From positions 1-55,423 of the IMG/VR virus record IMGVR_UViG_3300042892_000300: a stretch of DNA of 55,423 bases, one strand, 5' to 3'. Shown piece after piece: positions 25,602-49,217 of the stretch. The notes under the pieces were generated by a model, which saw only the letters and a list, made by a program, of their open reading frames with translations, made no database searches and was not told where the DNA came from. The position numbers and the translations under genes are program-made. Position 1 is the stretch's first letter. Each line of letters begins with the position of its first letter. This stretch comes from a virus.

Positions 25602-28600
25602 TCAGTACGAGAGGATGTCGAACGTGCGTTCGATGTCTTCCCGTCCAGCCTTAGGGACTGTACGCAGGGTGCGCTCCTTGGCGGGACGCTTTGCCTCCTT
25701 CAGTGCCCGGGCCGACCGGCCACGGAAGTCAGCGATCTGGAGACCAGTACCCTTGGCACCTTTGTTCCACTCGTCAACAGCAGACTCGATCTCTCGCGCT
25801 CCAGCATTGTCGCCTTCGATCTTGGCCTTGACCCACGCCGCACGGAACCCAGCCACAACATCTCTCTGGTAGTCTGTGACCCGGTTGCCGATCCGGATGA
25901 CGCTATACTGTTCAGCCGCCGCCGCTGGGTAGAACCCGAGCAGGCGCGCAGCGAGTACACCAGCCCCGATATCCTCGTCGACGATAGAACCCTTGCGGTT
26001 CACGATTGCGTCTGCCTTGGCGTATGCCACGGTGTCACCGACCGCTCGCATCATGGTGACAGGCGACTCACGCGCAAGGTCAACAAGACTGACCCGCTCA
26101 GAGAATGGAACACGCATCAGGTTGGCCAAGAAACCAGCGGACCCAATGAGCGCCGAGGGGGCTGGACCAGCGATGTCTGTTAGCTCTCGACCAACGTCGG
26201 CACCTGCGAGTAGGATACCTGAGCCGGGGATCACATTACCCAAGGACACGCGCCCGCCGATGTCTGCTGGCACAGCGCGGTTGACTAGACCCTGCATGAA
26301 GAAGGGTGACATACCCGGGAAGATGCCGTCGAGGAACTTGGCAATCTCCATGCGGATGCTGCCGGACTTGAACCCGAGAGCCTGAGCGAGCGTGTCGATC
26401 AGGTCTTCGAGGTCTTCAGCGAAGGGCAAACCCTGAAGGCCAGACAGCATCCACAAACTAGCCAGCATGGCGATCTTACCATTACGAGACAAGTTAGAGA
26501 ACAACTGGATCGAGGTCGTCGGGAAGACCTTGTACATATACAGGAACGACTGGATGCCAGAACGCCATGCAGGTGGGCGGTTAAGCACCGAGTACTCACC
26601 CATGGTGAGGTTCAAGGCTTCGACGGCGAACCGCCGCGCCGACTCGCTGGCCTTCTTGTCAGATACACCAGCCGATGTCTGTCGGTTGTACTCAAGGCGG
26701 TAGGCAGCGAGACCCAATGTGCGGCGTGACGCCTGCTCAGTGAGGTTGAACGGTAGCATCCACCCATCGATGAACTTGCGCAGGAACCCTGAAGATGTCT
26801 GGCCGCGCGCTGTGTTGAGCAGCGCGTTGGTCTGTGCGGGGATCATAGCGCCCTCGCGGATTTCCTGTGCGATGAACGCTGCCTCATGGGCCTTGAGTCC
26901 GTACCGGGCCTGAAGGTCGGTGCTCTTGGTGATCGCGTCGTAGAACTCAGCCGTGTTGGCCTTCAGGTTCGTCATACCAAGGGCACCAACCTGTCCCATT
27001 GCTACATGGAACGCAGCCACAGAGGGACCCATGCCGAAGCCGCCGCCGAACCCATTGCTGGGGTTGTAGCTGGCGAGGAACGGCAGTCCATTGGTGTACG
27101 CACTGATCAGGTTGAGTGCACCCGTAGCGATGGACCCGCCGAGTTGCATGATACTGGTGGTTGCCCGAACGCGCGCCGCGATCTTACCGGTTTCAAAGTT
27201 TGATTCAGTGACGCTGCGGTTGTCGTCGAGGAACGCCACGGTACGCGAAGCCTCATTGTAGAACTGGTTGGCCCGCTTCGGCTTACCCGCAGGATTGGTC
27301 TGCTCGTACATGAACCGGTACCGCTCATACTCACGGGTCGCCAAAGCACGTTCGTCAGGCGTCAGATTGGTATCCTCAGACATGGCTTTGAGGTCAGCCA
27401 GCAGCTTGGCATCACCGTTCCATAGGCGCTGAGTGGACTCCATCGACAGGTTCATCAGTTCGCCCAACTGCGGACGCATGATAACCTTGGAGATCGTGGA
27501 CGCGCGCGAGTCGATGTGCCGGGACACAGCACGGATGGCATCCGGGTCAGCACCCGGAGTGAACGCGCGAAGCAAACGATTGCGAGCCGTACTGTTCTGC
27601 CGGGTCAACGCCGTGACCACCTTCTCAACTTCTTTCGGTGTGAGCGTGATATCCAACTGGCGCAGGCCATAGGTAAACTCATTGAGGTTTAGTTCCGGCG
27701 GTCCAGCGATGGCGTCAAGGGATGTCTCTGGCACAGCGCGTAGCACCACGGTCTGCATGGTAAACTCATTGGCATCCGGGCTGTACGCCTCAACCTCATA
27801 GGTCTTGTCACCGAAGATATCGTTGATCCCCTTGGCAATGCCTTCAGCTTCGCTCTGCGCTTCGACCTGCGAATAGATCAGGCGCTCGCGGTACGCATCT
27901 GCAAGGCGCACAATCTTACCGGTCCGAGGGTTGGTAGCCTCGACGCGGACTTGGAACTGGCCTTCGCGCAGCAGCGGCGTATACCCAGTCGCGAGTGTGC
28001 GCCGGGTGTACAAGTCTGCGTCCGAGTTGGACACCTCCAACATCAGGATTTGTTTGATCCTATTCTGGATCGTGAACTTGTTACCCTCCCCGAGTTTCAG
28101 GCGAGCGCGGAACGCGCGAAGCTGGGCGACGATATCGTCAGCCGCCTTGCCTTCGAAGAAGGTAGCGACCGCCGCGAAGTCACTGTCCTTTCCACCAGCG
28201 GGGATAAGCGTCTTGTTGACCGCAATGATGAAGTCGTTGCCGGACCCCATGGCGTCGGCATTGAGCCGTGGGTATCCACGCTCATCGAAGGTGATGTCTG
28301 CTGTATAGATATCTTTGTAGGTCTTGATGATGCGGCGCAGCAGTTCACGCTCAGCACTGGTCAGTCGCTTGGTCTCGACAAGTTCATCGAACTGCTTGAA
28401 CGCGATCTTCTGGTCTTCGAACAAACTCTGATAACGCGCCCGCAGAAGCTGGAGTTCCACATCGTTGACGGTTGCGCGCAGGCTGGTGTAACCGCGCCAC
28501 TCGATGCTGTCCTCAGTAAGCCCGGGGATGCCAGCAAACTTCTCAGTGCGCATCGTACCATCGGGCAGCGGCACGGTATAGGAGAAACCATCTCTGGCCT

Positions 28601-31600
28601 GCGCAAGAGTGACCATACCCTGCTTAGTGAGCTTGTCGATCTCGGGCTGGTTCGGCGTCAATACGCCGTCCTTAAAGTCGTATAGCGGTGTGCCCTTGAG
28701 TGTGCGAAGGTCCGTGATCTTGGAGACAGCCAGTCGCTGAGCGTCATACATCAGCTTGCTGATCATCGCGGTCTGTTCGTCGGTCGTACCGAAGTACTTC
28801 CCGAACACTGCCGTGTTAAAGACCTCAGCGTTCCGCTCGTTGCTCGACACACGAATGCTGGAGGTGAGGTTCCTTGCGGCTTCCAACACTTCTTCCAACC
28901 GGTTCAACCCCGGGTTCAGGCGCGAACGAAAGTTGGCAAGACTCAGGAACTCAGCCTTGAGGCGGTCGAACCGGTCGATGTTGTCGCCGGTAAGCCCCTT
29001 GATGGCACCCCATGCAGCTTCGAAGTCGGTCGGTGTACCACCCACGGTATCACGCACCAGTTCGGCAGACTGGTTGTCAGAATAGAGATCACCCACCGTG
29101 GAGAAGCGCCCGGTTGATACATACCCGAGACCATGCTCAGTGTCGTAGAGATCGCCGAAGACCTTGGCCGCGTCGAAGATGCTGGGCTTGCCGGTCCGGA
29201 CGTAGGAGCGGGCGTGTTTCAGGGTGTAGCGCACCATCTCGTCGCCGAACTTAACACCCAACTTGTTGAGCGCACCCTTGATGGCGTTCCAGACCCGGGC
29301 CACGACGCTGGTGTCCAGCACAGCAGCAAAGTCCGACAGGTATTCTTCGACTGCCTCAGCGCGCGGCATCCCATTGGCCACGGCGACATCCACGTCGGCC
29401 TTGATGGCTGGGCTGGCGTTGTATATCGCATCCATGACAGCGTTGAACTGTGCCGCAGGGATGATCCCGCGCAGGCCGAAGTGCCCGATGGTCTCATGCG
29501 CGAGGACAAAGTTCAGGTGCTGCTCGTTGGCAATGCGGTCCGTGAAGATCACGACGTTGCCGTCGCCGAACGAGAAGCCCGCAGCTTCCGCCGTAGCGAA
29601 GTCACCCTCAGGGCGAGACGCGATAGCCTGCTGGTAGAGCTTCGGGTTCTTGGCCTTCATGTCCGCTTGGTTACGAAACACAGACATCTTTGGCTTGGTT
29701 ACCAACCGCGAAGTGAACCGCGTGATGGCCATACGCAGCTTGCCAACAGCAGGATCAGGACGATCTGGTGTGTTGAAGTCAGAGAGTTTGAACCTACCCT
29801 CCGGTGCTGGCGGCGTCAGTAAGCGTTCTACCCGACCGATTTGTTTCGGCTGCTGTGTCGCAGTCGCTGTCTTCCCTGTAGTCGTAGTCGTAGTCGTAGT
29901 CGTAGACGTTGCAAATGTCTTACCAGTTGCAGCCGTCTCATCAGGCAGTACAAACAGAGCGCCACCGTCCATCTGGTCAGCGTTGGCCTCCATGACATCG
30001 ACGATGACAGATTTCATCGTATTGATACAACCCGTACTGATCTTGTTATCAGTAGCATCAGCGTTTGTGATGCGGCCCAAGCGGTTCTGACCAGTGGCTT
30101 GCACGATCCCATGCATCGCTACAAATGCAGCACCACCAGTTGGAGCCTGACTCCACACTAAGCCACCTGTCTCCGGGTTGACCAGTGCGTAGAGGACACC
30201 ACCTTCGTATCCACCGCGCGCAATCCGCATAAGGCGGAACTTACCTGCTGGAGTCTTACTCCCTGCAACCGCTTCTTTGGTGTTAACGATTGTGTCGCCC
30301 GTGTCTTTACCAAATAGAGCCGACGTGCTCGACAGATGTTTGCCATTCTTGTCGAAGATATGGACCATACCCGCTGGCTTGTCGGCGATGATGAAGCCTT
30401 TACCAGTGCGGATCGCGCCCGGGGCCACAGTCTCATACACCCCAATCGCACGGTCAGACATGCTAGGACGTGCCGCTGTGGGTACACTCTTGCGTACCTG
30501 AGATGTTTCAGTCGCGCTGGCGACCTGATTGAGCGTAGCCGCGTTAGCCGCTGAGAACCGCGAAGTACCGATAGGGTTGACAACAACAGTGAATGCCACG
30601 ACGGCGACTACGAGTTTGCGTATGATAGGGCGCAGTGCGGCCTTGAGCGAGTCCAATCGAGACGGCTGTTTAATCGTGGCAATGGTATCGTTGACGAGGT
30701 TCTCGCGGACAGTGCCGTTGTATTCCGTCTCGTCGTAGGCTTCAGCAGCAGTCTGCTTCTCTTCAGTGGTGAGTGTTTTATCTACGAGTTTACCCACCTC
30801 AGCGGCTTCACGTTCGAGACGCGGGGCTTCTACCGGAGTGCTGCCGGGTTTCTCAGTAGAGACAACGCTATAGATCGGCTTGCCAAATACCTCAGCGACG
30901 GGCTGCATGTTGGCTTTGCCGTCAGCAGTGAAGTAGCTGCGCAGTGGGTAGCCATTGACGATAGCGTCCCGGTCAGCCTCGTTCACCGTGGTATAGAACT
31001 GCTCCAGTGCTGCCGGAAGATTGGCGTATGTCTCCCTGCCGCTGCCAGCTTGTGAGAAGGTGAACGGCTTGTCGAGGCTGGATGTCTTCAAGTTACCGTT
31101 GATCAGCGCCGTCACCTTGGACAGCGAGACGTTGGATGCCAGCAGCTTTGAGTCTGGTTTTGGTGCCTTGGTCTGGGCAGGTTCGACCTTAACCGCGAAG
31201 GCTTCAGTCGCGGCCTCACGGATCGCGTCGTCTTTGAGACGCGCGATGTCACTGACGTTACCTCGGCCAGTGGTGATCGAACTAACGAGGTCATTGTCCA
31301 CAGCAAACTGGAGCCATGGGCGTGGCGAACCATCTTTGCTAGACGCCGAGAGTTCTTCACTCTTCGCCAGACTGTTGGCCAGTTCAACGAACTGATCCTC
31401 GATAGTCTTACCCACACCATCTTCGGGAAACGTCACCTCGATGAATGCTCGGGCCTTGTCCGTGGCGTTCTTGGCAGCAGCACCAGTACCGGGTTCAGAG
31501 AAGTATGCGACCTCGACGAGATCATACACAGCCTCCTCGATGTCGGCCTTTGATTTGCCGGTCTCAACGTAGTCGATGGCGCTGTCCACCTGCTCACCGA

Positions 31601-34064
31601 ATGTAGGTAGCAGATCGCGTTCCTCCTTGGGGGAGCGACGAGTCTTCTTGGGTGCAGGTACAGCAGCCTTTACAGGCGGAACAACTTCTCGCGGTTTCGC
31701 CGGAACAGGTTCGACTTTGGTTTCTGCTTTTGCTTCGGACTTGGCGGTGCTTGCTCCGGCAGTTCCGCGTCCTCCGGCAGGTCGCTTGAGAGCTTCTCCG
31801 CTAGCTCCGGGTTGTTTTGCTGGAGGAACCTTAGCTGCTTCTGGCTTTTTAGCTGCACGGAGCTTTCCCCCCTTCGGTGGCGTCGGTGTCGGCGTGATGG
31901 CTCCAGTCACCACAGTGACCGGGGCAGTCTTAGTGAGACGGGCTGCGTTCTCTGCCTGTACCAGTTCCACACGGATGGTACGCAGATCGTCTTCGGTCAG
32001 TTCACCAACCGATGCCATGTTGAGGGCGTCGATCCACTGAGCTTGGATTTCGGGGAGAAACTTATCGAATGCCTTACGCCGACCGGGGCCAGTGGCGAGT
32101 GTGTTCCAAGCTGTCGTCGCCTGCTCAGGCGTCGTGCCAAGTTCGGGGCTAAGGATTGCTGTCTCAGCCGCCAACAACTCAGGCTGTATCTGCTGGAGTG
32201 TCTGACCTCTACGAAGTTCCACGGTCGGTACGCGCGCGGCTTCCTGCTGCGCAGCAACTGCCTGCTGTGCGGCGTCAAACGCTGCTTGACGTTCAGCAGT
32301 TACGGGTGCAGCCTCTGCGCGCTGTTGCATGGCGCGAAGAACTGGGTTGTCTGCGAGTGTACCTGTCGGAGCCGCAGGCTGGGCGAAGAAGCGCGGGGGT
32401 AGACCTGTCTCAAGCGGGAGCACGTCTTGGATTTGTGGACGTTCAGTCCCCTGTGCAAACGGCAACTCCATCTGCTGGTCGGTGCCAGCGACAGGTGCTT
32501 CGCCAAGACCAGCAACTGGAAACATCTCTCCTTGGGTTGGGGCAGCACCAACAGTGGGTAATGGTGCGACTCCTGTGCCTCCGGTGAGCGGTAGCTCCCC
32601 CTCAGGTGCGCTGTAGTCCGGTAGCCGCCCTTGTGGCGCGGGCAACGCCAATGTCGGAGGTGCCTCTGGAGCGGGCAGTGCGAGCGGAGGAGCGGGCAGA
32701 GCCAGCATCTGGTCCGGGTTACCACCCTGCAAGACATCCGCAGCCTTCTTGCCCTTCAGGTTTGCGAGGCCACCGAGAGGCCCGCCGACAGCGAAGCCAG
32801 CAGCGAACGAGTTGATGAGGCGCTGGACGTTCTCGGGCTTGGAGAAGTCCTGATCCGACAGACCCAGAAGCAGAGCCTCCTGACCTGCCTCTGTGGCACC
32901 TTCAGCAGCACCGCCAACGGCGGTACCCGTACCCACGCGACGAAGGAGTTCAGCACCACGACGGGGCAGGGACGTACCAGCAGCAATGGCTGCGCGACCA
33001 CCGGCACCGAAGAGGCGGCTGGCGAGAGCGAACTCAGGCAGCAAATCGAGAAAGGCATACGGCAGCGACCCGGCAACAGCCGTCAGTCGGGCACCCACAT
33101 CGTCAGCATCAGCACCCTGATCCCTGAGTTCTCCGTAGATGTCTGAAGCCCCAAGGGCCATACTGTTGGCGACATTCGCAGCCGTCGCACCCGTGATTGC
33201 CGCAGCATTCCGTAGTAGTTTAGCCTGAGCCGCGTCAAGAACCTCACCAGCGGCGCGCTTGCGGGCGGCTGCAAGCACAGAGTTCTTCCACGCGGTCTTA
33301 CCGACGAGACCAGCGACAGCACCACCAGCAGCAGCCAGCGGACCACCAGTGAAACCACCAGCTACGGCACCGGCAAGACCGGCACCCACGGACTCCAGCA
33401 GCATGGGACCCTGCTCGCCCAGCGTAGCGACGAACCAGTCGATGGCATCATCTCCGCTCTGGATGTCGGTGAACTGACGCGCGTAAGGCTCAGTCTTGCG
33501 GAGGTCTTCGACCTGCTGTGCGACGGTGCGACCACCGAACTCTTCGGCACCAAGAAGCTGAGCGCCGCGACCAGCGAGCATCTGGAGGGAGTCGATGCCT
33601 CGCCCGAACCCTTTACTGAACAACTCACCACGGCTGGGGTTCCGGATGATCTGAGTATATTGTGCGTAGGTGCCCGGGTCTAGCTGTCGGAACCCCGCAG
33701 GAAGCTGACCGACCGGAGCGCCACTCAGTGTGGCCTCAGCCTCAAGCGCAGCTTGGGCATCATCGGCAGTGAAGCGACGACCCTGCACATAGAGTTCATC
33801 TCCCGCTGCACTGACACCGATGACAGGCGTAGGCGCTCGCTGTGGTGGGGCCATGAGATCAGCGAGGGACGCTCGCGACCGGGAGAGAAATCCACCAGCA
33901 AGAGCAGCCTGATCAGCAGCCGAAGACCCGAGACTTCCTACACCAGTGGGACTACTGGCTGGCATGGATGGTGCTGTAGGTAGAAATGGATCAGCCGATA
34001 CTCCAGAGACCGCGCCAGTGAGGAAGGGGTCGTTATTGTAGCTCAGACCGGCTTTAGGTGCCAT
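25602..34064 (-). CDS. Giant multi-domain internal virion (ejection) protein
   Basis: I choose the ATG at 34064 (2820 residues, MAPKAGLSYNNDPFL); a TTG at 34085 is weaker. It is the last gene of the ejectosome cluster, like T7 gp16. Alanine/glycine-rich hydrophobic stretches lie near residues 210-300. Near 1150-1175 is a basic-hydrophobic signal-peptide-like segment (RKLVVAVVAFTVVV, then NPIGTS and ANAA). Residues ~1203-1375 form an L,D-transpeptidase (YkuD)-like domain, with AMHG near 1318 and STGCI near 1345. HETIGH (HExxH) lies near 1522. The long C-terminal part is helical, with hydrophobic patches. It probably forms a channel and cuts or remodels the cell wall during DNA entry. Confidence 0.85.
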   Translation of the reverse strand: MAPKAGLSYNNDPFLTGAVSGVSADPFLPTAPSMPASSPTGVGSLGSSAADQAALAGGFLSRSRASLADLMAPPQRAPTPVIGVSAAGDELYVQGRRFTADDAQAALEAEATLSGAPVGQLPAGFRQLDPGTYAQYTQIIRNPSRGELFSKGFGRGIDSLQMLAGRGAQLLGAEEFGGRTVAQQVEDLRKTEPYARQFTDIQSGDDAIDWFVATLGEQGPMLLESVGAGLAGAVAGGFTGGPLAAAGGAVAGLVGKTAWKNSVLAAARKRAAGEVLDAAQAKLLRNAAAITGATAANVANSMALGASDIYGELRDQGADADDVGARLTAVAGSLPYAFLDLLPEFALASRLFGAGGRAAIAAGTSLPRRGAELLRRVGTGTAVGGAAEGATEAGQEALLLGLSDQDFSKPENVQRLINSFAAGFAVGGPLGGLANLKGKKAADVLQGGNPDQMLALPAPPLALPAPEAPPTLALPAPQGRLPDYSAPEGELPLTGGTGVAPLPTVGAAPTQGEMFPVAGLGEAPVAGTDQQMELPFAQGTERPQIQDVLPLETGLPPRFFAQPAAPTGTLADNPVLRAMQQRAEAAPVTAERQAAFDAAQQAVAAQQEAARVPTVELRRGQTLQQIQPELLAAETAILSPELGTTPEQATTAWNTLATGPGRRKAFDKFLPEIQAQWIDALNMASVGELTEDDLRTIRVELVQAENAARLTKTAPVTVVTGAITPTPTPPKGGKLRAAKKPEAAKVPPAKQPGASGEALKRPAGGRGTAGASTAKSEAKAETKVEPVPAKPREVVPPVKAAVPAPKKTRRSPKEERDLLPTFGEQVDSAIDYVETGKSKADIEEAVYDLVEVAYFSEPGTGAAAKNATDKARAFIEVTFPEDGVGKTIEDQFVELANSLAKSEELSASSKDGSPRPWLQFAVDNDLVSSITTGRGNVSDIARLKDDAIREAATEAFAVKVEPAQTKAPKPDSKLLASNVSLSKVTALINGNLKTSSLDKPFTFSQAGSGRETYANLPAALEQFYTTVNEADRDAIVNGYPLRSYFTADGKANMQPVAEVFGKPIYSVVSTEKPGSTPVEAPRLEREAAEVGKLVDKTLTTEEKQTAAEAYDETEYNGTVRENLVNDTIATIKQPSRLDSLKAALRPIIRKLVVAVVAFTVVVNPIGTSRFSAANAATLNQVASATETSQVRKSVPTAARPSMSDRAIGVYETVAPGAIRTGKGFIIADKPAGMVHIFDKNGKHLSSTSALFGKDTGDTIVNTKEAVAGSKTPAGKFRLMRIARGGYEGGVLYALVNPETGGLVWSQAPTGGAAFVAMHGIVQATGQNRLGRITNADATDNKISTGCINTMKSVIVDVMEANADQMDGGALFVLPDETAATGKTFATSTTTTTTTTTGKTATATQQPKQIGRVERLLTPPAPEGRFKLSDFNTPDRPDPAVGKLRMAITRFTSRLVTKPKMSVFRNQADMKAKNPKLYQQAIASRPEGDFATAEAAGFSFGDGNVVIFTDRIANEQHLNFVLAHETIGHFGLRGIIPAAQFNAVMDAIYNASPAIKADVDVAVANGMPRAEAVEEYLSDFAAVLDTSVVARVWNAIKGALNKLGVKFGDEMVRYTLKHARSYVRTGKPSIFDAAKVFGDLYDTEHGLGYVSTGRFSTVGDLYSDNQSAELVRDTVGGTPTDFEAAWGAIKGLTGDNIDRFDRLKAEFLSLANFRSRLNPGLNRLEEVLEAARNLTSSIRVSSNERNAEVFNTAVFGKYFGTTDEQTAMISKLMYDAQRLAVSKITDLRTLKGTPLYDFKDGVLTPNQPEIDKLTKQGMVTLAQARDGFSYTVPLPDGTMRTEKFAGIPGLTEDSIEWRGYTSLRATVNDVELQLLRARYQSLFEDQKIAFKQFDELVETKRLTSAERELLRRIIKTYKDIYTADITFDERGYPRLNADAMGSGNDFIIAVNKTLIPAGGKDSDFAAVATFFEGKAADDIVAQLRAFRARLKLGEGNKFTIQNRIKQILMLEVSNSDADLYTRRTLATGYTPLLREGQFQVRVEATNPRTGKIVRLADAYRERLIYSQVEAQSEAEGIAKGINDIFGDKTYEVEAYSPDANEFTMQTVVLRAVPETSLDAIAGPPELNLNEFTYGLRQLDITLTPKEVEKVVTALTRQNSTARNRLLRAFTPGADPDAIRAVSRHIDSRASTISKVIMRPQLGELMNLSMESTQRLWNGDAKLLADLKAMSEDTNLTPDERALATREYERYRFMYEQTNPAGKPKRANQFYNEASRTVAFLDDNRSVTESNFETGKIAARVRATTSIMQLGGSIATGALNLISAYTNGLPFLASYNPSNGFGGGFGMGPSVAAFHVAMGQVGALGMTNLKANTAEFYDAITKSTDLQARYGLKAHEAAFIAQEIREGAMIPAQTNALLNTARGQTSSGFLRKFIDGWMLPFNLTEQASRRTLGLAAYRLEYNRQTSAGVSDKKASESARRFAVEALNLTMGEYSVLNRPPAWRSGIQSFLYMYKVFPTTSIQLFSNLSRNGKIAMLASLWMLSGLQGLPFAEDLEDLIDTLAQALGFKSGSIRMEIAKFLDGIFPGMSPFFMQGLVNRAVPADIGGRVSLGNVIPGSGILLAGADVGRELTDIAGPAPSALIGSAGFLANLMRVPFSERVSLVDLARESPVTMMRAVGDTVAYAKADAIVNRKGSIVDEDIGAGVLAARLLGFYPAAAAEQYSVIRIGNRVTDYQRDVVAGFRAAWVKAKIEGDNAGAREIESAVDEWNKGAKGTGLQIADFRGRSARALKEAKRPAKERTLRTVPKAGREDIERTFDILSY
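29878..29901. repeat. Four tandem GTAGTC hexamers
   Basis: The plus strand reads gtagtc four times in a row, extended by a partial copy. In the giant protein gene it encodes a run of Thr (about 9 residues) just after the L,D-transpeptidase-like domain. It is a slippage-prone linker rather than a functional site. Confidence 0.8.
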
Positions 34065-34071
34065 GAGTTCT

Positions 34072-34425
34072 CTACCCTCTACCAATCACGACGTGCCAAT
34101 GGGGACCAGTAGCATAGCTGACGGGGTCGTTGACTTCGTCCCGCCCTTCAATAACCCGGTACCCTGCTTGTTGTATAGACCCAACGTAGTCCGCGAACGT
34201 CATGCCCGGGATAGGCGCAATGTCCACGGCGGCAGCGGTCTTGACGTGGTACGAGTCTGGGTTCTTCTGACCCAGCGCACTACCTGCTGCACGAGTAGTC
34301 TGTGTAATGCGAGCGCCCGGGAACAACTGCTTGATGACAGCCCCGCCATTGGCGACAGGCGTACCCGGTTCCTTGAAGCGCGTGGCGCTAGGGTTGAAAG
34401 GTACCCGGGGTAGTAAGCCCCGCAC
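34072..34425 (-). CDS. Second M15-type peptidase, virion or ejection-associated
   Basis: I choose the GTG at 34425 (117 residues), preceded by AAGGA seven bases upstream; a GTG at 34476 or TTG at 34479 would overlap the upstream gene by about 90 bases. Zinc-ligand pattern: SYHVKTAAAVDIAPI (H60, D68) and GPHWHVV (H109, H111), as in D-Ala-D-Ala or L-Ala-D-Glu peptidases. It lies between two internal virion protein genes rather than in the lysis cassette, so it probably cuts peptidoglycan during entry. Its 5' end overlaps the end of the gene at 34388. Confidence 0.75.
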   Translation of the reverse strand: MRGLLPRVPFNPSATRFKEPGTPVANGGAVIKQLFPGARITQTTRAAGSALGQKNPDSYHVKTAAAVDIAPIPGMTFADYVGSIQQAGYRVIEGRDEVNDPVSYATGPHWHVVIGRG

Positions 34426-36106
34426 CTCCCATTCCTTCAACGGGGACTGCCCCGTACCGCGTGACTTCCTTGTCACCAATCGTAACGGTTTGCCCTGTGG
34501 GGTTATAGTAGAAAGCCTGACCTGTCGCCTTGTCAGTAATGATTGCGCCTTCGCCCATCACCCTGACATCGACTCCACGCTGCTTCATACTCTCCAAAGC
34601 TCGCTGTGTATTACCCTGCATCTCAGTCACAGCAAGTGTTCGGATAGATGTTGCCAGTTGATTTGCTGCGTCTTGCGATGACTTAATATTACCCTTGAAC
34701 TGTTCTTTGCTGATGTCGAGATTGTAATCAAATATCTTCGCTGACTGCGCAGCGATTGCCGCTTCGCGGCTGGTGCGCCACGCCGTGTCGAACATAGCGC
34801 GGGCGCGGCCAACCACATCATCTCGGGACAGGTCCCTAGCAATCGTCGTGGTCTTGTCGCCGGTATCAAGTCGGACGATGTTGAACTTACCATCATCCCG
34901 TGGCTGCACCGCCACAGGTACGCCCATGTAGTGGGTCATGATTGCATTCAACCGACGTGGGTCATTCAACGACCCGAACTCAAGGATACCTTGAGTGCCC
35001 TGCATCACGGCCATGTTGTTGTCGATCTGGTCGATGACGCCCTTCAACTCAAAGAACTTGGCGCTGTCGGCTGGCGACCGTGCCCGCGCATAGATCGTCG
35101 CGAGACGTGCAAGTTGCTCCCGCTTCGTCATGGCGTTCTGCATCTCAGGCGAGATCGCCTGCGGGTTTCCGAGATACCACTCGACGGGGTTCTGACTGGC
35201 CTGTGCCTGAGCTTCAGGAGTTGGGGCCGAGACCGAGGCCACGGGTGCTTCCTGATTGACCTGCGTCGTCACCTGTTCAGTTACAGCCTGCTGCTGGGCC
35301 TTCTTCGTTGCCGGTGTCTGCACACCAGCGAGTGGTACCTTCGCTGCTGCCTTCGCTGCTGCCTTTGCTGCCGGGGCCTTGGTAACTTCCTTATAGAACG
35401 CAACTGGGTTCGCCTCTGCCGAGGCCAGCATCTCAGGGTTGGCCCGGAAGTACTTGTTGGCGGCAGGGGACTTATACCACTGGGCGGCGGTATCACCCGC
35501 TTCCATCTGGCGCTTCTCGGTCTGGGATGCGAATGGTTTGCGGATGGTGCTAAAAGGTACATTAGCCGCTACCACCAGACCTGATAGTCTGTTGTTTAGT
35601 GTTGCTTCGTTCTGGGCCTGAATACGACCCTGCGTCACATCTGATGCATTAGGATCAATCCGGCGGAACCCAGCTACACCTTCGCCTAGCCGGTCGCCCG
35701 TCTTTGGGGCGGCAACCGCAGGGACTTTGGCCGCGACAGCGGGCTTAACCGCAGGGGCCACGGGGGGAGTTGCAGCAGCTTTAACCACGGCTGCGGGCTT
35801 AACCACAGGAGCCACGGCTGCGGGTGTGGTCCGCAAGACAGGCAGACCAGTAGCGGGAAGCTGCACACCAGCCGAAGTAGCAGCAGGGGCTGTGGGCATT
35901 ACACCACCGGGAGGTGTCAACCCGGGGACAATCTGCTGGCCGATAAGATTGGAAGCCTCAGCCTCCAGTTCCTTCATCTTCCGCGCTTCGCGGTTCTGGG
36001 CCTCGATAGCCAGTTGGTTCTGGCGATCCAGACGTGCGGCCTGCTTCGCTTCGTCGAACGACGTAACGCCTGCACCTGCGGTAGCGAGAAATGATCCCAG
36101 AGACAT
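34388..36106 (-). CDS. Internal virion protein, T7 gp15-like position
   Basis: The 572-residue protein starts at the ATG at 36106 after TAGGAG. The N-terminus is a coiled-coil helix (RLDRQNQLAIEAQNREARKM), then a ~100-residue Pro/Ala/Val linker (VKPAAVVKAAATPPVAPAVK), a helical middle part and a folded end. The size, place after the hydrophobic gene at 36125 and before the giant ejection gene match T7 gp15. No sequence motif is known to me. It is likely carried inside the head and ejected with DNA. Confidence 0.7.
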   Translation of the reverse strand: MSLGSFLATAGAGVTSFDEAKQAARLDRQNQLAIEAQNREARKMKELEAEASNLIGQQIVPGLTPPGGVMPTAPAATSAGVQLPATGLPVLRTTPAAVAPVVKPAAVVKAAATPPVAPAVKPAVAAKVPAVAAPKTGDRLGEGVAGFRRIDPNASDVTQGRIQAQNEATLNNRLSGLVVAANVPFSTIRKPFASQTEKRQMEAGDTAAQWYKSPAANKYFRANPEMLASAEANPVAFYKEVTKAPAAKAAAKAAAKVPLAGVQTPATKKAQQQAVTEQVTTQVNQEAPVASVSAPTPEAQAQASQNPVEWYLGNPQAISPEMQNAMTKREQLARLATIYARARSPADSAKFFELKGVIDQIDNNMAVMQGTQGILEFGSLNDPRRLNAIMTHYMGVPVAVQPRDDGKFNIVRLDTGDKTTTIARDLSRDDVVGRARAMFDTAWRTSREAAIAAQSAKIFDYNLDISKEQFKGNIKSSQDAANQLATSIRTLAVTEMQGNTQRALESMKQRGVDVRVMGEGAIITDKATGQAFYYNPTGQTVTIGDKEVTRYGAVPVEGMGGAGLTTPGTFQP

Positions 36107-36124: not shown

Positions 36125-37207
36125 TTAGCCGATGGCGCTGGGTGCAGACTGGAACCCACCGATGACGGACCCAAACAGCTTCGCGATATCGGCGGCTTGC
36201 TGGCGCTTGGCTTCCTCAGCCTGCTTACTCAGCCCAGAAATCCGACTCGCCTCCTCAGTCGATGAAGGGAACGCGGAGGGAAGTGACGCCAGACCGGCTT
36301 GCCGCACTTTCAACTGGCTTTCTAAACCGGTGCCGTAGCCCTGCTGGAAAGCGGAACCCGCTGAACGCGAAGTATCCAGACGCCCACGGCGGCGCTCAGC
36401 GGAAAGTCGTTCACCTGTTAGACCGCGTGTAGACTCCGCAGTTTGAATGCCACCCTTAGTAATAGCAGCCTGCGCGGCTTGTCGCCCGAAGTAGTTGGGG
36501 TCAAGTTGTTTAGCTTGATTAAGAAGACCCACCGATTCAGAGAGCCGAGTGTTGTACAAGTTCTCGTTCTGTGCCCGTGCTTTCTCAAGCTCTGCCATCT
36601 GGATACCAGTCAGCGTGTTGGCAACGCCACCAGAAGCAGCCAGACCACCTACTAGCTTTGGCGCGACACTCTGAAACACCGGGTTGGATACGATCTTGCC
36701 AGCGGTGGCACCAAGACTACTTAACGCACCACTCAAGCCCCCGCCGCCAGCGGAGGCCGCAGCAGGGAGGGCCGCACTGATCCCACCAATACCAGCACCG
36801 ATGCTCGCCGCACTCGGCACCGCGCTTGGTGCCGCAGTGGCAAGACTACTACCGATAGTCCCGAGATTGCCGAGATTAGTTGCGGCGTTCGCTCCTCCAG
36901 CAAACGTAGAGCCTGCTGCGCCCGCCGTACCTGCGGCTGTGCCCGCCGTACCTGCGGCTGTGCCCGCCGTACCTGCGGCTTTTGCAGCACCAAAGAGCGG
37001 ACCAGCACCAGCACCAATGCCACCCGTGATAGCCCCGACGAGAGGGTCACCACCAGTAGCCGCGCTGACACCAGCACCGAGACCCGCACCAATAGCGATG
37101 GTGGCGATAGTGCCCGACACACCGATAGCTCCAGCGATGAAAGGCGCAGCGTAGGGGATGGCGATCATTGCAGCAACCGAGACGATAATTTTAAGTGTCT
37201 TGCTCAT
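36125..37207 (-). CDS. Hydrophobic internal virion protein, T7 gp14-like position
   Basis: The 360-residue protein overlaps the acetyltransferase-like gene by an ATGA. The N-terminus has one strong membrane-like helix (LKIIVSVAAMIAIPYAAPFI) followed by long Gly/Ala-rich hydrophobic stretches, including three AAGTAGT repeats. The C-terminal half is helical and Gln-rich. T7 gp14 forms the outer-membrane channel for ejection; this protein has the position and membrane propensity for that role. The sequence similarity is not visible, so the assignment is positional. Confidence 0.7.
   Translation of the reverse strand: MSKTLKIIVSVAAMIAIPYAAPFIAGAIGVSGTIATIAIGAGLGAGVSAATGGDPLVGAITGGIGAGAGPLFGAAKAAGTAGTAAGTAGTAAGTAGAAGSTFAGGANAATNLGNLGTIGSSLATAAPSAVPSAASIGAGIGGISAALPAAASAGGGGLSGALSSLGATAGKIVSNPVFQSVAPKLVGGLAASGGVANTLTGIQMAELEKARAQNENLYNTRLSESVGLLNQAKQLDPNYFGRQAAQAAITKGGIQTAESTRGLTGERLSAERRRGRLDTSRSAGSAFQQGYGTGLESQLKVRQAGLASLPSAFPSSTEEASRISGLSKQAEEAKRQQAADIAKLFGSVIGGFQSAPSAIG
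36920..36982. repeat. Three tandem 21-bp repeats
   Basis: The unit gcccgccgtacctgcggctgt begins at 36920, 36941 and 36962, with the last copy ending in ttt rather than tgt. It encodes seven residues (AAGTAGT-type) repeated three times in the Gly/Ala-rich section of the ejection protein. Confidence 0.85.
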
Positions 37208-38805: not shown

Positions 38806-41243
38806 TATGCTTCCCTCAACCCAGTGGGGGTCTCTGCGAGGTGGATAGCACGGATACGGACTGTACCTTCCACACTCACTTCGAAGGTATCCGAGCGATA
38901 CCCCGTAGGGAGGCGGAACACAGTGCCGCTGTTCAGCGAAGACTCGTAGATAAGCGCCTTGTCGACCCAGAGTTTGAACGTGACTTCATCCCCCGCAGAC
39001 CACAGCATCGTCTCGCTCTGCCACTGCTGTGTGGCAGCATTCCACAGCGTGGTGATAGATGTGTAGTCGGCGATTACCCGAGCGGCACCGAGGTTCAACA
39101 TGTCCTTGGTCTTGATGACCTTAGACTTCCAAGTCTGTACAGACGGCGGCTGTGTTAGATCATCCCACTGATAGATGTCTCCGTCGCTGCCGTCGACGTA
39201 GAACAGATGTCCAGCTACAGGGTCGTACCAAGAGGCAGAGAAGCTGTAGTCTAGGTTGACATACTGCCCTCCTACCGATGGAACTGGTTCGAAAGTGAAC
39301 CCTCCCGTAGAGTGCGAAGCTAGATAAGCATCACCGTAGAACGCGCCGACAACGGTAGAGGGGTCAAGCTCCTCGCTCCATGTATCATTGTTGAAGTTCG
39401 TCTTGGTTGCGAGCATCGGACCGCCACCGGTAGAATACACAGCCATGCCATCATGAGACGGCCAGATAACTCCATAGTTCATGGAGACGATACCCTTGCG
39501 GTTGAGGCAAGGGTACAGAACATCGACACGCTGGACAGTTATGACCGCTGGGTCGTTGCCTTGTAAGATGTATGGGTAGCCCTCAGTCAGAACGAGGATC
39601 GAGCCATTGGTCAGCGCAAGCCCTACGATGTTGTACTCAAACGTCTTGGCATAAAGCTGCGGCCATGCGTGGGGCCTCCCGGGTTCCGAGAGATACAGCT
39701 TGTTACCCACAAAGCCGACGAGGATATTATTCTGTGCAGCGATCACCCCCTGCAAGTCGTTCGGTGGTGCATCATACTCATCGGACGCGAGCACGTCGGC
39801 CAAGTTCAGTGGATCGAAGTCGTCGATGAAAGCATAGTTACCACCGTCGCCCCAGTAGCGCGCCGTGTCTGTAGTCTGGTCCTCGCTCACATCCATGAAC
39901 ATGGTGCCTGCGGCCACGGTTGTGCTGGCAACATTCGCCGCCGTCTGCGCATACTCAAACGTGTAGTCGTCGACGATGTCAGTCACGATACCACCGGAGA
40001 TATCGAACGACGCCTGTGAGCAGCCTGAAATCTTGAACCGATCTTCGATGCCGAGATTGTGCGGGAAGGCCAGCGTCACTCGCGATACGTTCGCTGTGCG
40101 CTGCACCAAGGTCAGCGCCGTAGGGAACCACAGGGTCTTGAGTCGGAAGTACTCCGCATCCCCCGCTGTAGCGAGAGTGCGATACAGTCGAACACCACGG
40201 ACGAAGTTGTTCCCCTCCGGCTTCGCAGTGGGTAGGTCAGGGATCGTGACGATCACCCCATCCTTGACGTAGATATCAGTAGAGGGGTCGGACGCAATTG
40301 ACTCCTCGTCCCATGGCGTCATCCATGTGAAAACATACGAGCGCGACTGCGGAGGGCTACCTAAGTCGACCCGACCTGAGTAGTTGGTCGTCGTCGTGAC
40401 TCTGGGTCCGGGGCTGAAGTAGGTGAACGACGTGTCGTTCACCACTGTGATCGCGGTGCTTGTCGCGTTGAAGGTACGGATGTCCATGCGGACGCCGCCG
40501 GTCAGACTCTCGATTGTTGGGACCGTGATGGTGAAGGTCCCCGAGGTTACACCCGAGATAACGTAGCTGCCGTTTGCCGGACGTGGGTTGTCTCCGGCGT
40601 TGCCGCCAGATGTGAACTCTAGGGTGACAGACGCGCCGTCTGATAGGCCATGGCCACTGATGCTGATTGTGACAGTCGAGGACGACTGAGAGTACGTCCC
40701 GCCCATGAACGTGAAGCCCGTGATCGTGACGCTCGCACCGTCACGCAGACCGTGAGGGGTAGTCGTTACAATCGTGGCCGTGTTGTTGACATCACGCGCG
40801 TAGCTCACCGTAGTCTCGGTGGCAAACTCAGTCACTTCTGTTGTCAGCTTCTCAGTCGGAAGCGGTAGGCCGAGGTCGTAGTACCCAATGGGGTAGGCAC
40901 CGACACCCGTGGTAGCCAGCAGATAGTTGCTCACCTTCGGGACGCCGTCCCCTGTGTAGTAGAACCGTTGGTCGTCCAGTTCAGACGCGGTCACGATAGC
41001 GATGTTCACATCGGTCAACCATGACAACCACTTGTAGGCCCCTCCGCTATCACGCAAGGCGTAGAGAGTCCGGATTACGCCAGTACGCCCGCAGTTGTCG
41101 GTGATCACGGGTTGCGGGTACGGGATCAGATCACCCGAGTAGAGCTTACAGTTGTTGGCAATCTGACTGGCAGTATCCGGCAGCAACTCCGGAGATACCT
41201 TCGGCGCAATGCCGAGGAAGGTTGTGATCTTGACGCCAGCCAT
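38805..41243 (-). CDS. Tail nozzle-like protein, T7 gp12-like position
   Basis: The 812-residue protein starts at the ATG at 41243 after AAGGTAATACC. It is beta-rich throughout, with segments typical of nozzle and tail-tubular proteins (KITTFLGIAPKVSPELLPDT early on, then many SVTIT-type strands). A propeller-like second half ends in RIRAIHLAETPTG. The gene precedes the gp13-14-15-16-like cluster in the same order as T7 gp12. It should form the distal tail tube. Assignment rests on size, composition and order. Confidence 0.75.
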   Translation of the reverse strand: MAGVKITTFLGIAPKVSPELLPDTASQIANNCKLYSGDLIPYPQPVITDNCGRTGVIRTLYALRDSGGAYKWLSWLTDVNIAIVTASELDDQRFYYTGDGVPKVSNYLLATTGVGAYPIGYYDLGLPLPTEKLTTEVTEFATETTVSYARDVNNTATIVTTTPHGLRDGASVTITGFTFMGGTYSQSSSTVTISISGHGLSDGASVTLEFTSGGNAGDNPRPANGSYVISGVTSGTFTITVPTIESLTGGVRMDIRTFNATSTAITVVNDTSFTYFSPGPRVTTTTNYSGRVDLGSPPQSRSYVFTWMTPWDEESIASDPSTDIYVKDGVIVTIPDLPTAKPEGNNFVRGVRLYRTLATAGDAEYFRLKTLWFPTALTLVQRTANVSRVTLAFPHNLGIEDRFKISGCSQASFDISGGIVTDIVDDYTFEYAQTAANVASTTVAAGTMFMDVSEDQTTDTARYWGDGGNYAFIDDFDPLNLADVLASDEYDAPPNDLQGVIAAQNNILVGFVGNKLYLSEPGRPHAWPQLYAKTFEYNIVGLALTNGSILVLTEGYPYILQGNDPAVITVQRVDVLYPCLNRKGIVSMNYGVIWPSHDGMAVYSTGGGPMLATKTNFNNDTWSEELDPSTVVGAFYGDAYLASHSTGGFTFEPVPSVGGQYVNLDYSFSASWYDPVAGHLFYVDGSDGDIYQWDDLTQPPSVQTWKSKVIKTKDMLNLGAARVIADYTSITTLWNAATQQWQSETMLWSAGDEVTFKLWVDKALIYESSLNSGTVFRLPTGYRSDTFEVSVEGTVRIRAIHLAETPTGLREA

Positions 41244-41784: not shown

Positions 41785-42177
41785 TTAAGTTCCTTTCGGG
41801 TATAACTTCCAAGGCAATTCCCAGTGCGGGCCGTCCTTGAAAGTTCGCCAGTCGCCGCCCCAAACGAGCGGGACACTCTCGGCCAAAGCAGCGGCCTTTA
41901 TGATCTTAGCCAGCCGGTGATACAGAGGCCAGTCCCAAGATACGCCATCGCCTACCATTGGCGCAAGATCGACAGCGTGGCCAGTCAGGTGACGCGAGTT
42001 CAGCGTCTTGGTGGCACCGTTCTTCATCAGCACCTGTTGCCGCGCCAGCGTCCGCCGTCCCTCTAGCACCGTGAAGTCCAGATCGGACATGACCGCCGCG
42101 CGCTTTACGACACGCACTAGATCGGGATGCACATCCTGAAGGCGTGATAGCGAGCGCGGGCCTAGAACGATGCTCAT
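41785..42177 (-). CDS. Endolysin, M15-type peptidase
   Basis: The 130-residue protein is a compact single-domain D-alanyl-D-alanine or L-alanyl-D-glutamate peptidase. The zinc and catalytic pattern SRHLTGHAVDL (H63, H67, D70) and DGPHWEL (H118) is intact. It starts at the ATG at 42177. It has no secretion signal, so the holin must release it. It is part of the lysis set holin, spanins and endolysin. A second M15-type gene lies at 34072-34425 in the virion genes. Confidence 0.9.
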   Translation of the reverse strand: MSIVLGPRSLSRLQDVHPDLVRVVKRAAVMSDLDFTVLEGRRTLARQQVLMKNGATKTLNSRHLTGHAVDLAPMVGDGVSWDWPLYHRLAKIIKAAALAESVPLVWGGDWRTFKDGPHWELPWKLYPKGT

Positions 42178-45484: not shown

Positions 45485-46546
45485 TTATGCCTCCAGCTTG
45501 GCCCGATAGAAGGCAAGGTTATTCTTCAGTCGTTCGTTAGTAGGTTCAAGTTGACAAGCCAACTCGCCCTGCTCCACGGCACCACTATACTCGTTAATGT
45601 GGAATGCAGCAATGGCCATAAGATCATGGGGCTTTGCCCCCCACACGGTCGGGTCCATGGTGTAGACCAAGGCTTTGTCCTTGATCTCCAGTGCCTGTGC
45701 AGCAGCATCATAACATGCCTGCCAGTCCTGATCTTGGTATGCCAGATCGGCGAGTTCAACCCAAGGTTCGCGTGTGTTCGGTGCTTCGACGGTGGCCTTC
45801 CGGTACCACTTGCGCGCTGTGTCCTGCTGCCCCAGTTTGGCATATGATTGCCCCAGTAACCGCATCGCATAGCACCGCTCATTCGCCCAGTTCGCCTGCG
45901 GATTATCGAGGTACTTCAGCAGCGCAACGATAGCGTCCACCCACTGGTTGTAAAAAGTTAGTTCGCGGGCGTAGTAGAAGGCGTTGCGCGGGCAGGCCGG
46001 GTCCTCTTTTACCGACAACTCTAGCAGATCGAGATACTGCCCTCGGCTTTTGCTAGGGTCGGGATGATGGCTGACCAGCAACACATCGGTGTGTGCATAG
46101 ACTTCTTTGATGCGACCATCGGGACGCGGGTACTCATGACATGGATGGTGCCAGTGATAGCCATGGCGCGCATGGATTTTTTCATAGTAGAAACTGATGC
46201 CGCTACCCCAGTCGAACTTGTACCGCAGCCGCGTCGTGTTTTCTTTCCAGACACGTTCGATCTCCTCACGCCATCCCGGCTCCATCACCTCATCGAGGTC
46301 GAGGCTGATGCACACATCAATATCACGGGGCACCAGCGCCAACGCAGCATCACGCGCTTTATCAAACCGCCAAGGGGTGATGCAGATGTCGTGCACCACA
46401 GCGCCATGTTCACGGGCTTTAGCAACGGTATCATCTGTGCTGCCGGTGTCGGCAATCATGACGAGGTCGGCGTCCTGCGCGGACGCGCAGAAACGCTCGA
46501 TAAACTCTTCTTCGTTCTTACTGATAGCGTAGATTGCGATCTTCAT
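45485..46546 (-). CDS. Glycosyltransferase family 2 with TPR-like tail
   Basis: The 353-residue protein starts at the ATG at 46546 after GGAGG. The first ~200 residues are GT2: [13 protein letters not shown] at residue ~8, [10 protein letters not shown] near 31, and a DxD-type motif in [10 protein letters not shown]. The C-terminal half is a helical repeat region ([40 protein letters not shown]) of TPR type. A glycosyltransferase among fibre genes may modify fibres, or host surface polysaccharide. Donor sugar and acceptor are unknown. Confidence 0.85.
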
Positions 46547-47052: not shown

Positions 47053-47918
47053 CAAAGGTTACCTGTATTGGTGGATGGGAAAACTCGTGTTGTACCGGGC
47101 CAGATGATACGGACCCCGCCGGCTGCTCCGAGACCACCTGTGCGATTGTAGGCTGCGCCGGAACCTCCGCCGCCAACAGCGCCGCCAGTAGCGCCGTTCG
47201 AGTTGGCGAAGCCGGGTGCGCCCGCAGCGCCTGCGCCCGGACCGCCTTGGCCCGTGTTAGCAGTAGGAGCAGCCGGTGTTATAGTGGCACCAAGAAGTGA
47301 CGCACCACCGCCCCCACCGCCGGCGCTCATTCCCGAAACACCACGAGCGCCGCCTGAACCGCCGCCGCTTGCTCCCGGATCGGCGTTATAAAAGTAGCCG
47401 CCGCCGCGCCCGCCGTTACCAGTGTAACCGGCAGCGCCACCGCCTCCACAAGCCTCTTGGTAGCTAGCAGCACCGCCTTCACCACCACTGTTTCTTACCA
47501 CCCCAGTGCCGGAAGAAGCTGCGCCGCCAGAGCCTTGCGAGCCGTAGTCACGACCGCCCCCACCACCTACAGCAGAAACTACAGAGCTAAAAAGACTAGA
47601 CCCGCCAGTACCTCCCGTTACGATAAATGAGGAACCGCCCGATCCTCCGGCACCCACAGTTACAGAGTAGCTCGTACCCGCAGTGACTGAAATGTTATTG
47701 CTGTACGAGAGCGCGCCACCGCCGCCTCCACCGCCGGAGTACCCGACGTCTGTCCCGCCGAAACCGCCACCGCCTCCACCGCCTACTACAACGACAGACA
47801 CAGAAGTTACCCCCTCAGGAGCCACCCACGAAAAGGTCCCTGCCGTGGTATACGCCGCTTGCCCCGCCGAAGGACCGCCCCCACCCACCATCAGCAATGC
47901 GCGAGATACGCTATCCAT
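47052..47918 (-). CDS. Glycine-rich tail fibre tip protein A
   Basis: The 288-residue protein starts MDSVSRALLMVGGGGPSAGQ and has a FSWVAPEGVTSVSVVVVGGG motif followed by long Gly runs (GGGGGGG, GGGGGRD, GGAASSG) to near the end, and a common tail ending RVFPSTNTGNL. It resembles Gly-rich fibre tips of many phages, which form poly-Gly-helix or loop-based receptor contact tips. It is a paralogue of the protein at 48441-49217. Confidence 0.8.
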   Translation of the reverse strand: MDSVSRALLMVGGGGPSAGQAAYTTAGTFSWVAPEGVTSVSVVVVGGGGGGGFGGTDVGYSGGGGGGGALSYSNNISVTAGTSYSVTVGAGGSGGSSFIVTGGTGGSSLFSSVVSAVGGGGGRDYGSQGSGGAASSGTGVVRNSGGEGGAASYQEACGGGGAAGYTGNGGRGGGYFYNADPGASGGGSGGARGVSGMSAGGGGGGASLLGATITPAAPTANTGQGGPGAGAAGAPGFANSNGATGGAVGGGGSGAAYNRTGGLGAAGGVRIIWPGTTRVFPSTNTGNL

Positions 47919-48441: not shown

Positions 48442-49217
48442 TAGAGGTTCCCCGTATTAGTTGAAGGGAAGGCGCGTCCTTCGCCCCAGATGATGCGGAC
48501 AGCACCAACACCAGCAACACCAGCCCAAGCATCTGCGCCGCCGCCATAGAGGCTACCAGAACCTCCTGAACCGGCAACGCCGGGGTTATCAGTGGCCGCA
48601 CCCCCACTGGTACCCTGACCCAACAGACCCACGCCTCCGCCCGGATAACCACGTCCGCCGCCGCCTCCTGCACCTCCAGTCCCTCCCGTCCCCGTAGTAG
48701 TGCCAGAAACAACGTCGGCCCCGACGCCCCCAGTTCCAGCATAACCGCCCGCACCGCCGCCGCCGCCAATAGTAGTTCGGCTACTTCCGTTAAAGTTACT
48801 GCGGCCTCCGGTGCCTCCGGTGCCTCCGCCATCATAAATGTCAGAAAAAGACCCCCCCGCACGGCCCTGAAGGCCACCTTGTCCGCCGGTCGCAGTAACA
48901 GTTATCACCCCGTTATTAAAACTGCTATTACCCCCACTTCCTTGTGACAAACCAGCAATACCGACCACTACAGTATAAGATACGCCGGGTGTTACAGCGA
49001 TGTTGTTTTTGTACGCAAGACCGGCACCTCCGCCGCACGGATAACTTGGATTACCGCCGCCCCAACCACCTCCGCCCCCGACACAAACCACGCATACGCT
49101 AGTCACACCAGCGGGGGCGACCCACGAAAACGTGCCATTAGTTGTGAAAGCCTGCTGTCCCGGCAATGCGGGTGGCGCACTGGCCCCACCGAGCAAGGCT
49201 AACATAATGCCCGACAT
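48441..49217 (-). CDS. Glycine-rich tail fibre tip protein B
   Basis: The 258-residue protein starts at the ATG at 49217 in a TAATG overlap. It begins [20 protein letters not shown] and holds FSWVAPAGVTSVCVVCVGGG, then Gly-rich loops (GGGGAGGYAG, TGGTGGAGGGGGRGY) and ends with RAFPSTNTGNL. It is paralogous to the protein at 47052-47918 with the same start-to-end plan; this copy has a Cys pair (VCVVCV) that the other lacks. It may recognise a different receptor. Confidence 0.8.
   Translation of the reverse strand: MSGIMLALLGGASAPPALPGQQAFTTNGTFSWVAPAGVTSVCVVCVGGGGGWGGGNPSYPCGGGAGLAYKNNIAVTPGVSYTVVVGIAGLSQGSGGNSSFNNGVITVTATGGQGGLQGRAGGSFSDIYDGGGTGGTGGRSNFNGSSRTTIGGGGGAGGYAGTGGVGADVVSGTTTGTGGTGGAGGGGGRGYPGGGVGLLGQGTSGGAATDNPGVAGSGGSGSLYGGGADAWAGVAGVGAVRIIWGEGRAFPSTNTGNL

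What the first reader, a model, noticed from the sequence alone, without database searches (positions are those of the whole stretch)
25602..34064. 2820-residue ejection protein with an embedded L,D-transpeptidase-like domain behind a signal-like segment
Seen: at about residues 1150-1175 a basic-hydrophobic segment followed by ANAA looks like a cleavable signal peptide; ~30 residues later a YkuD-like domain carries AMHG and STGCI motifs, then a Thr-rich linker and a HETIGH motif near 1522. Known: YkuD enzymes act in the periplasm on peptidoglycan; T7 gp16 is ejected into the cell wall and has a transglycosylase domain. Inference: this phage swapped in another wall-active enzyme, perhaps from a host gene with its signal retained.
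Basis: partly seen in the sequence, partly recalled or inferred. Interest (0 to 1): 0.85.

Follow-up and report, generated by a model that had tools for sequence, protein, structure and literature searches.

The report
Wall-remodelling enzyme inside phage ejection protein
A giant protein that this phage probably packs in its particle and injects into bacteria carries, in a slot where its closest relatives have nothing or a different enzyme, an L,D-transpeptidase-type cell-wall enzyme behind a membrane-seeking segment, and the same two-part unit recurs in dozens of otherwise different giant phage proteins that I could not find described in the literature.

Summary
The ORF lies on the minus strand (34064→25602, 2820 aa). 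Residues 1222-1376 are a YkuD/L,D-transpeptidase (LDT) domain. Evidence: weak direct Pfam hit (E=0.0018), transitive homology to annotated LDTs, AlphaFold model with Foldseek hits to Pgp2, Csd6 and YkuD (probability 1.00), and catalytic His1318/Cys1346 invariant in 19 aligned phage copies. The protein is a PLxRFG-type giant phage protein (NCBIfam E=2.6e-36); its homologue in phage H66 is recorded as a virion protein by mass spectrometry. The LDT sits in an exchangeable slot: none of about 80 relatives of the scaffold has it, syntenic siblings are empty, one carries ART-PolyVal. The LDT, mostly with a similar basic-hydrophobic segment about 185 residues before its Cys, is embedded in 29 of 42 IMG/VR contigs found by its motif, in a phage-plasmid and in a Geobacteraceae MAG; 15 of 19 have a metallopeptidase HExxH motif just downstream. 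The window's copy falls in an all-phage clade, so shuffling between giant phage proteins is likelier than recent host capture. The hydrophobic segment is conserved, but the ANAA cleavage site is not. Best mechanism: a membrane-anchored, periplasm-facing wall-remodelling cargo delivered at entry. Activity and delivery are inferred.

The parts
25602..34064 (-). Giant PLxRFG-type polyvalent/ejection protein, 2820 aa, last gene of the late minus-strand block
30885..34064 (-). Residues 1-1060: N-terminal scaffold, about 50% identical in syntenic siblings
29802..30884 (-). Residues 1061-1421: cargo slot; LDT cassette here, ART-PolyVal in L002, no LDT in the other relatives
30570..30809 (-). Residues 1086-1165: helical module ending in the basic-hydrophobic segment 1147-1165 (only KD>1.5 19-mer in the protein); conserved ahead of embedded LDTs
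30537..30548 (-). ANAA (1173-1176), possible signal-peptidase site, not conserved in the family
29937..30401 (-). Residues 1222-1376: YkuD/L,D-transpeptidase domain
30108..30119 (-). AMHG, catalytic His1318
30021..30038 (-). STGCIN, catalytic Cys1346
29145..29759 (-). Residues 1436-1640: zincin-like metallopeptidase candidate, HETIGH 1523-1528 (HEXXXH type) and invariant downstream glutamates
   Evidence: fold search inconclusive
25737..27599 (-). Residues 2156-2776: PLxRFG (tail-700) domain
38808..41243 (-). Internal virion protein (phrog_511) upstream in the same late block
41788..42177 (-). M15 D-Ala-D-Ala carboxypeptidase family protein (separate wall enzyme, also present in LDT-less siblings)

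Best explanation
The gene encodes a giant polyvalent protein that is packaged in the virion of a podovirus and ejected with the DNA (inferred from family, gene order and a homologue found in virions). Between its N-terminal scaffold and a metallopeptidase-like domain is an exchangeable cargo slot (shown). In this phage the slot holds a module of about 300 residues, shared with other giant phage proteins, made of a helical basic-hydrophobic segment followed by an L,D-transpeptidase with intact active-site residues (shown). Most likely the hydrophobic helix, packed away in the virion, inserts in the inner membrane after ejection with its basic flank on the cytoplasmic side and the LDT in the periplasm (inferred from the positive-inside rule). 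There the enzyme acts on tetrapeptide stems of peptidoglycan, forming 3-3 cross-links or trimming them, so as to remodel the wall around the entry site or to mark or protect the infected cell (inferred). The downstream metallopeptidase may cut the module free (inferred from order). It is an accessory function, because close relatives lack it.
For: LDT identity. Invariant His/Cys with DNxIxxGCIN in 19 embedded copies. Virion/ejection setting: NCBIfam tail-700/PLxRFG E=2.6e-36; phage H66 homologue annotated 'verified by mass spectrometry'; internal virion protein in the same block, with homologues near embedded-LDT giants in L061, L065, L070 and the phage-plasmid. Cargo slot. Hydrophobic segment conserved at a near-fixed distance (about 163-197 residues before the Cys in most copies; net positive n-side in nearly all). 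HExxH downstream in 15 of 19 against 0.05 expected from composition. Shared phage clade.
Against: No direct test of packaging, ejection, membrane insertion or enzymatic activity. The hydrophobic core is short (about 12-15 residues) and AlphaFold places it in a helical region, so it may be a structural helix only. The group L034/L047/L051/L058 lacks the segment. The metallopeptidase fold was not confirmed by fold search, and four of the 19 LDT giants counted (plus L070) have no HExxH motif near the LDT. Polyvalent proteins are usually thought to act in the cytoplasm, where an LDT has no known substrate (own knowledge).
Confidence: 0.6

Rival explanations
1. The hydrophobic segment is a working internal signal peptide: after the giant protein reaches the cytoplasm (or is newly made there), a peptidase cuts ahead of it and the Sec system exports the freed LDT.
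For: Positively charged n-region, 12-residue h-region and ANAA site in the window; VHA|A in the phage-plasmid copy; secreted host LDTs have a similar layout and spacing.
Against: No AxA site in most of the window's clade; the metallopeptidase lies after, not before, the LDT; helical residues ahead of the segment are conserved and predicted to be ordered.
Confidence: 0.15
2. The LDT serves only to loosen the wall during DNA entry, in the place of the lytic domain of T7 gp16, as an L,D-carboxypeptidase or endopeptidase.
For: Best fold hits include Pgp2 and Csd6, which are L,D-carboxypeptidases by general knowledge; T7 gp16 precedent (PMC8954989).
Against: Syntenic siblings have no such domain and keep the same late genes, including an M15 peptidase; trimming stem peptides does not by itself open the glycan mesh.
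Confidence: 0.2
3. Recent capture of a host secreted LDT gene with its signal.
For: Host LDTs with signal peptides are the nearest stand-alone homologues.
Against: The tree puts the window's copy in an all-embedded clade of 15 (99/95) and host stand-alone LDTs in their own clade (100/98); GC3 of the insert is not unusual.
Confidence: 0.04

Closest known systems
Polyvalent proteins of phages (Iyer et al. 2017, PMC5512222)
   Same: Giant multidomain late-gene proteins with zincin-like peptidases, ART-PolyVal and LPD domains; LDT-bearing relatives carry LPD38, LPD23, LPD5, LPD1, ART-PolyVal and ddrB-ParB.
   Different: The main text of that survey lists lysozyme, SpoIID and DD-peptidase as wall domains and does not mention YkuD or transpeptidase (its supplements were not readable); the hydrophobic module ahead of the LDT was not found described. 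No LPD domain was found by Pfam in the window's own protein.
PLxRFG (tail-700) giant proteins, e.g. Pseudomonas phages F116 and H66
   Same: Homologous C-terminal domain, late-gene position; H66 protein recorded as found in virions.
   Different: A search of the annotated phage collection with the window's LDT domain gave no match.
T7 gp16 ejection protein
   Same: Large ejection protein with a wall-active domain and membrane segments (PMC8954989).
   Different: T7's enzyme is an N-terminal lytic transglycosylase; here a mid-protein L,D-transpeptidase after the hydrophobic segment. No sequence homology was shown.
YkuD/L,D-transpeptidases (Pgp2, Csd6, B. subtilis YkuD, LdtMt)
   Same: Fold and His/Cys site.
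   Different: His-Cys spacing of 28 residues with an inserted R..RL..DN segment, against about 16 in B. subtilis YkuD (from memory); embedded in a phage giant.

Membership tests
YkuD / L,D-transpeptidase | Profile match to PF03734 | tested here: inconclusive
   E=0.0018, 19.3 bits, below the 23.4 cut-off; phage-plasmid homologue passes at 27.2 bits
YkuD / L,D-transpeptidase | Catalytic His and Cys (Ser/Thr-x-Gly-Cys-hydrophobic-Asn) | tested here: met
   His1318, Cys1346; invariant in A4 and against host LDTs in A2
YkuD / L,D-transpeptidase | YkuD fold | tested here: met
   LDT part of the AlphaFold model mostly confident; Foldseek top hits almost all LDTs, probability 1.00
YkuD / L,D-transpeptidase | L,D-transpeptidase activity | not testable with these tools
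   needs biochemistry
PLxRFG (tail-700) giant phage protein | NCBIfam NF032893 above cut-off | tested here: met
   125.3 bits against 100
Polyvalent protein | Several unrelated enzymatic domains in one late phage polypeptide | tested here: met
   LDT plus zincin-like motif domain plus PLxRFG, in a late block with virion genes
Polyvalent protein | LPD domain in the protein (frequent in, not required for, the class) | tested here: not met
   no LPD hit in the window protein, although present in other LDT-bearing giants
Polyvalent protein | Packaged and injected | not testable with these tools
   indirect only: H66 homologue in virions
Zincin-like metallopeptidase | HEXXH/HEXXXH plus downstream Glu | tested here: met
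   HExxGHFG and EE invariant in 24 aligned relatives
Zincin-like metallopeptidase | Zincin fold | tested here: inconclusive
   no significant PDB match, best E=0.11; M48 E=0.04 only
Sec signal peptide | n-region, h-region and AxA site | tested here: inconclusive
   all present in the window, AxA absent in most of its clade; no SignalP available

The most novel reading that the evidence does not exclude
The order membrane segment, LDT, metallopeptidase is a mobile delivery cassette that phages insert in ejection proteins: after injection the LDT is anchored on or released to the periplasmic face and re-cross-links (3-3) the wall at the puncture, a phage-delivered wall-sealing or superinfection-blocking enzyme rather than a wall-degrading one.
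Probability: 0.2. Interest if true: 0.82.

Novelty: new variant of a known kind. Interest (0 to 1): 0.62.

Why it matters
Phage ejection proteins are known to carry wall-degrading enzymes. A recurrent module that carries a wall cross-linking/trimming enzyme with its own membrane segment would mean that phages also deliver wall remodelling at entry. The exchangeable slot (LDT, ADP-ribosyltransferase or nothing) gives a natural way to test what ejected cargo does, since syntenic siblings with and without it exist.

Tried and rejected
Single-sequence searches in IMG/VR with the window LDT and with the phage-plasmid LDT found no relative; a degenerate DNA pattern for DN[KR]ISxGCIN did. PDB sequence searches missed the LDT family. 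Alignment A2 was too divergent for a scan. The E. coli genome search for the phage-plasmid giant found nothing. LPD38 in the window's C-terminus was tested with a home-made profile and not found. Anomalous composition of the insert was tested and not found: GC3 0.560 against a sliding mean of 0.646, sd 0.074. Host capture disfavoured by the tree. Paper searches for transpeptidase with polyvalent, virion, internal virion protein or large polyvalent protein found no description of phage LDT giants; two papers opened for the term concern an Ig-like domain of phi29-like tails and an LD-peptidase in polymorphic toxins.

Full report
OBSERVATION. The reading frame 25602-34064 is on the minus strand and encodes 2820 residues from ATG at 34064. 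The listed motifs are present: hydrophobic segment 1147-1165, ANAA 1173, AMHG 1316, STGCIN 1343, HETIGH 1523. The hydrophobic segment is the only 19-mer with mean hydropathy above 1.5 in the protein.

DOMAIN IDENTITY. A scan of the whole protein finds no YkuD, but the domain alone hits PF03734 at E=0.0018, below the curated cut-off. The domain matches plasmid-borne proteins, two of them annotated as L,D-transpeptidases, and a 2318-aa protein of a 60.5-kb phage-like plasmid (E=2e-10; E=9e-15 in a pairwise comparison that includes the hydrophobic segment). That protein passes the YkuD cut-off (27.2 bits). Catalytic His and Cys are invariant against host LDTs and in 19 embedded phage copies. An AlphaFold model of residues 1086-1640 is confident over most of the LDT, and Foldseek returns Pgp2, Csd6, YkuD and mycobacterial LDTs at probability 1.00.

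CARGO SLOT. Syntenic relatives in IMG/VR (L001, L002, L004, L006 and others) are about 79% identical over residues 1408-2820 and about 50% over 4-1060, but the region between is missing. L002 has an ART-PolyVal domain there (E=1.7e-11). A wider search for the scaffold gave 80 loci: none has an LDT, and ART occurs only in L002 (= L155); other kinds of insert in the slot were not looked for. The LDT therefore looks like an accessory cargo gained in this lineage.

THE MODULE IS WIDESPREAD. A DNA pattern for DN[KR]ISxGCIN found 42 IMG/VR stretches; in 29 the LDT is embedded in a long or open frame (up to 3220 aa), in 13 it is a small stand-alone protein (some of these are near-copies of each other). 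The collection of bacterial and archaeal genomes gave one embedded case among the 80 best loci (L070, Geobacteraceae MAG, 2826 aa); the other loci measured are stand-alone frames of 202-545 aa. The embedded copies, except L034/L047/L051/L058, share a basic flank and a hydrophobic core before the LDT, in most with a helical stretch ahead and FNP at its end. In 15 of 19 a HExxH-type motif follows within 320 residues, against 0.05 expected from composition; the motifs differ in sequence, so the order is conserved more than the partner. Pfam shows LPD38, LPD23, LPD5, LPD1, ART-PolyVal and ddrB-ParB in these giants. The viral structure library already holds one UniProt entry named 'L,D-TPase catalytic domain-containing protein' among the matches, so automatic annotation has seen the domain.

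ORIGIN. In a maximum-likelihood tree the window's LDT lies in a clade of 15 copies, all embedded (99/95); bacterial stand-alone LDTs form a separate clade (100/98). Labels need 2 changes against 19.3 when shuffled. The tree is unrooted, and the order of events is inference. The insert's GC3 is not an outlier.

VIRION SETTING. The C-terminus is a PLxRFG (tail-700) domain above the curated cut-off; its homologue in phage H66 is annotated as verified by mass spectrometry as part of the virion. The gene lies in the late block downstream of an internal virion protein gene (phrog_511, E=6e-110), with tail-fibre and adaptor genes further upstream; the same kind of neighbour occurs at L061, L065, L070 and in the phage-plasmid.

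MECHANISM. Shown: domain identity, intact catalytic residues, slot exchange, conserved segment, conserved order. Inferred: packaging and ejection, insertion of the helix in the inner membrane with the LDT in the periplasm (positive-inside rule), peptidoglycan remodelling there, and release by the metallopeptidase. T7 gp16 offers a precedent for membrane segments that are folded in the virion and refold after ejection (PMC8954989), and the polyvalent-protein survey for processing by metallopeptidases (PMC5512222). A cleavable signal peptide is possible in this copy but not conserved. The metallopeptidase assignment rests on invariant HEXXXH and glutamates; its fold was not confirmed.

NOVELTY. 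That polyvalent or PLxRFG proteins carry exchangeable enzymes is known. An L,D-transpeptidase with its own membrane segment as a recurrent cargo was not found in the papers searched (open-licence papers only), so I rate it a new variant of a known kind.

Noticed in passing
L014:20328-27284 (CP061838.1 40327-47283): A 60.5-kb element filed as E. coli plasmid pSTEC648_2 is phage-like (holin, lysozyme, ParB, internal virion protein homologue) and has no megablast match of its giant gene in the E. coli complete-genome collection.
   Followed up: partly
47055-47918 and 48444-49217: Two nearby related genes of the phrog_4474 type in the tail-fibre region, 50% identical over 121 residues.
   Followed up: partly
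45488-46546: A beta-1,4-glycosyltransferase family gene (phrog_13126, E=4e-103) between tail-fibre genes.
   Followed up: no
34391-36106 and 36128-37207, against L001, L002, L004, L006: The 572-aa and 360-aa genes before the giant gene align with their sibling copies only in blocks (32-52% identity), while the 115-aa and 812-aa genes are 62-65% identical; these two may be further mosaic ejection proteins.
   Followed up: partly
L034, L047, L051, L058: A group with the LDT at the extreme C-terminus of the frame and no hydrophobic segment of the usual type; three of them show a HEALH motif upstream.
   Followed up: no
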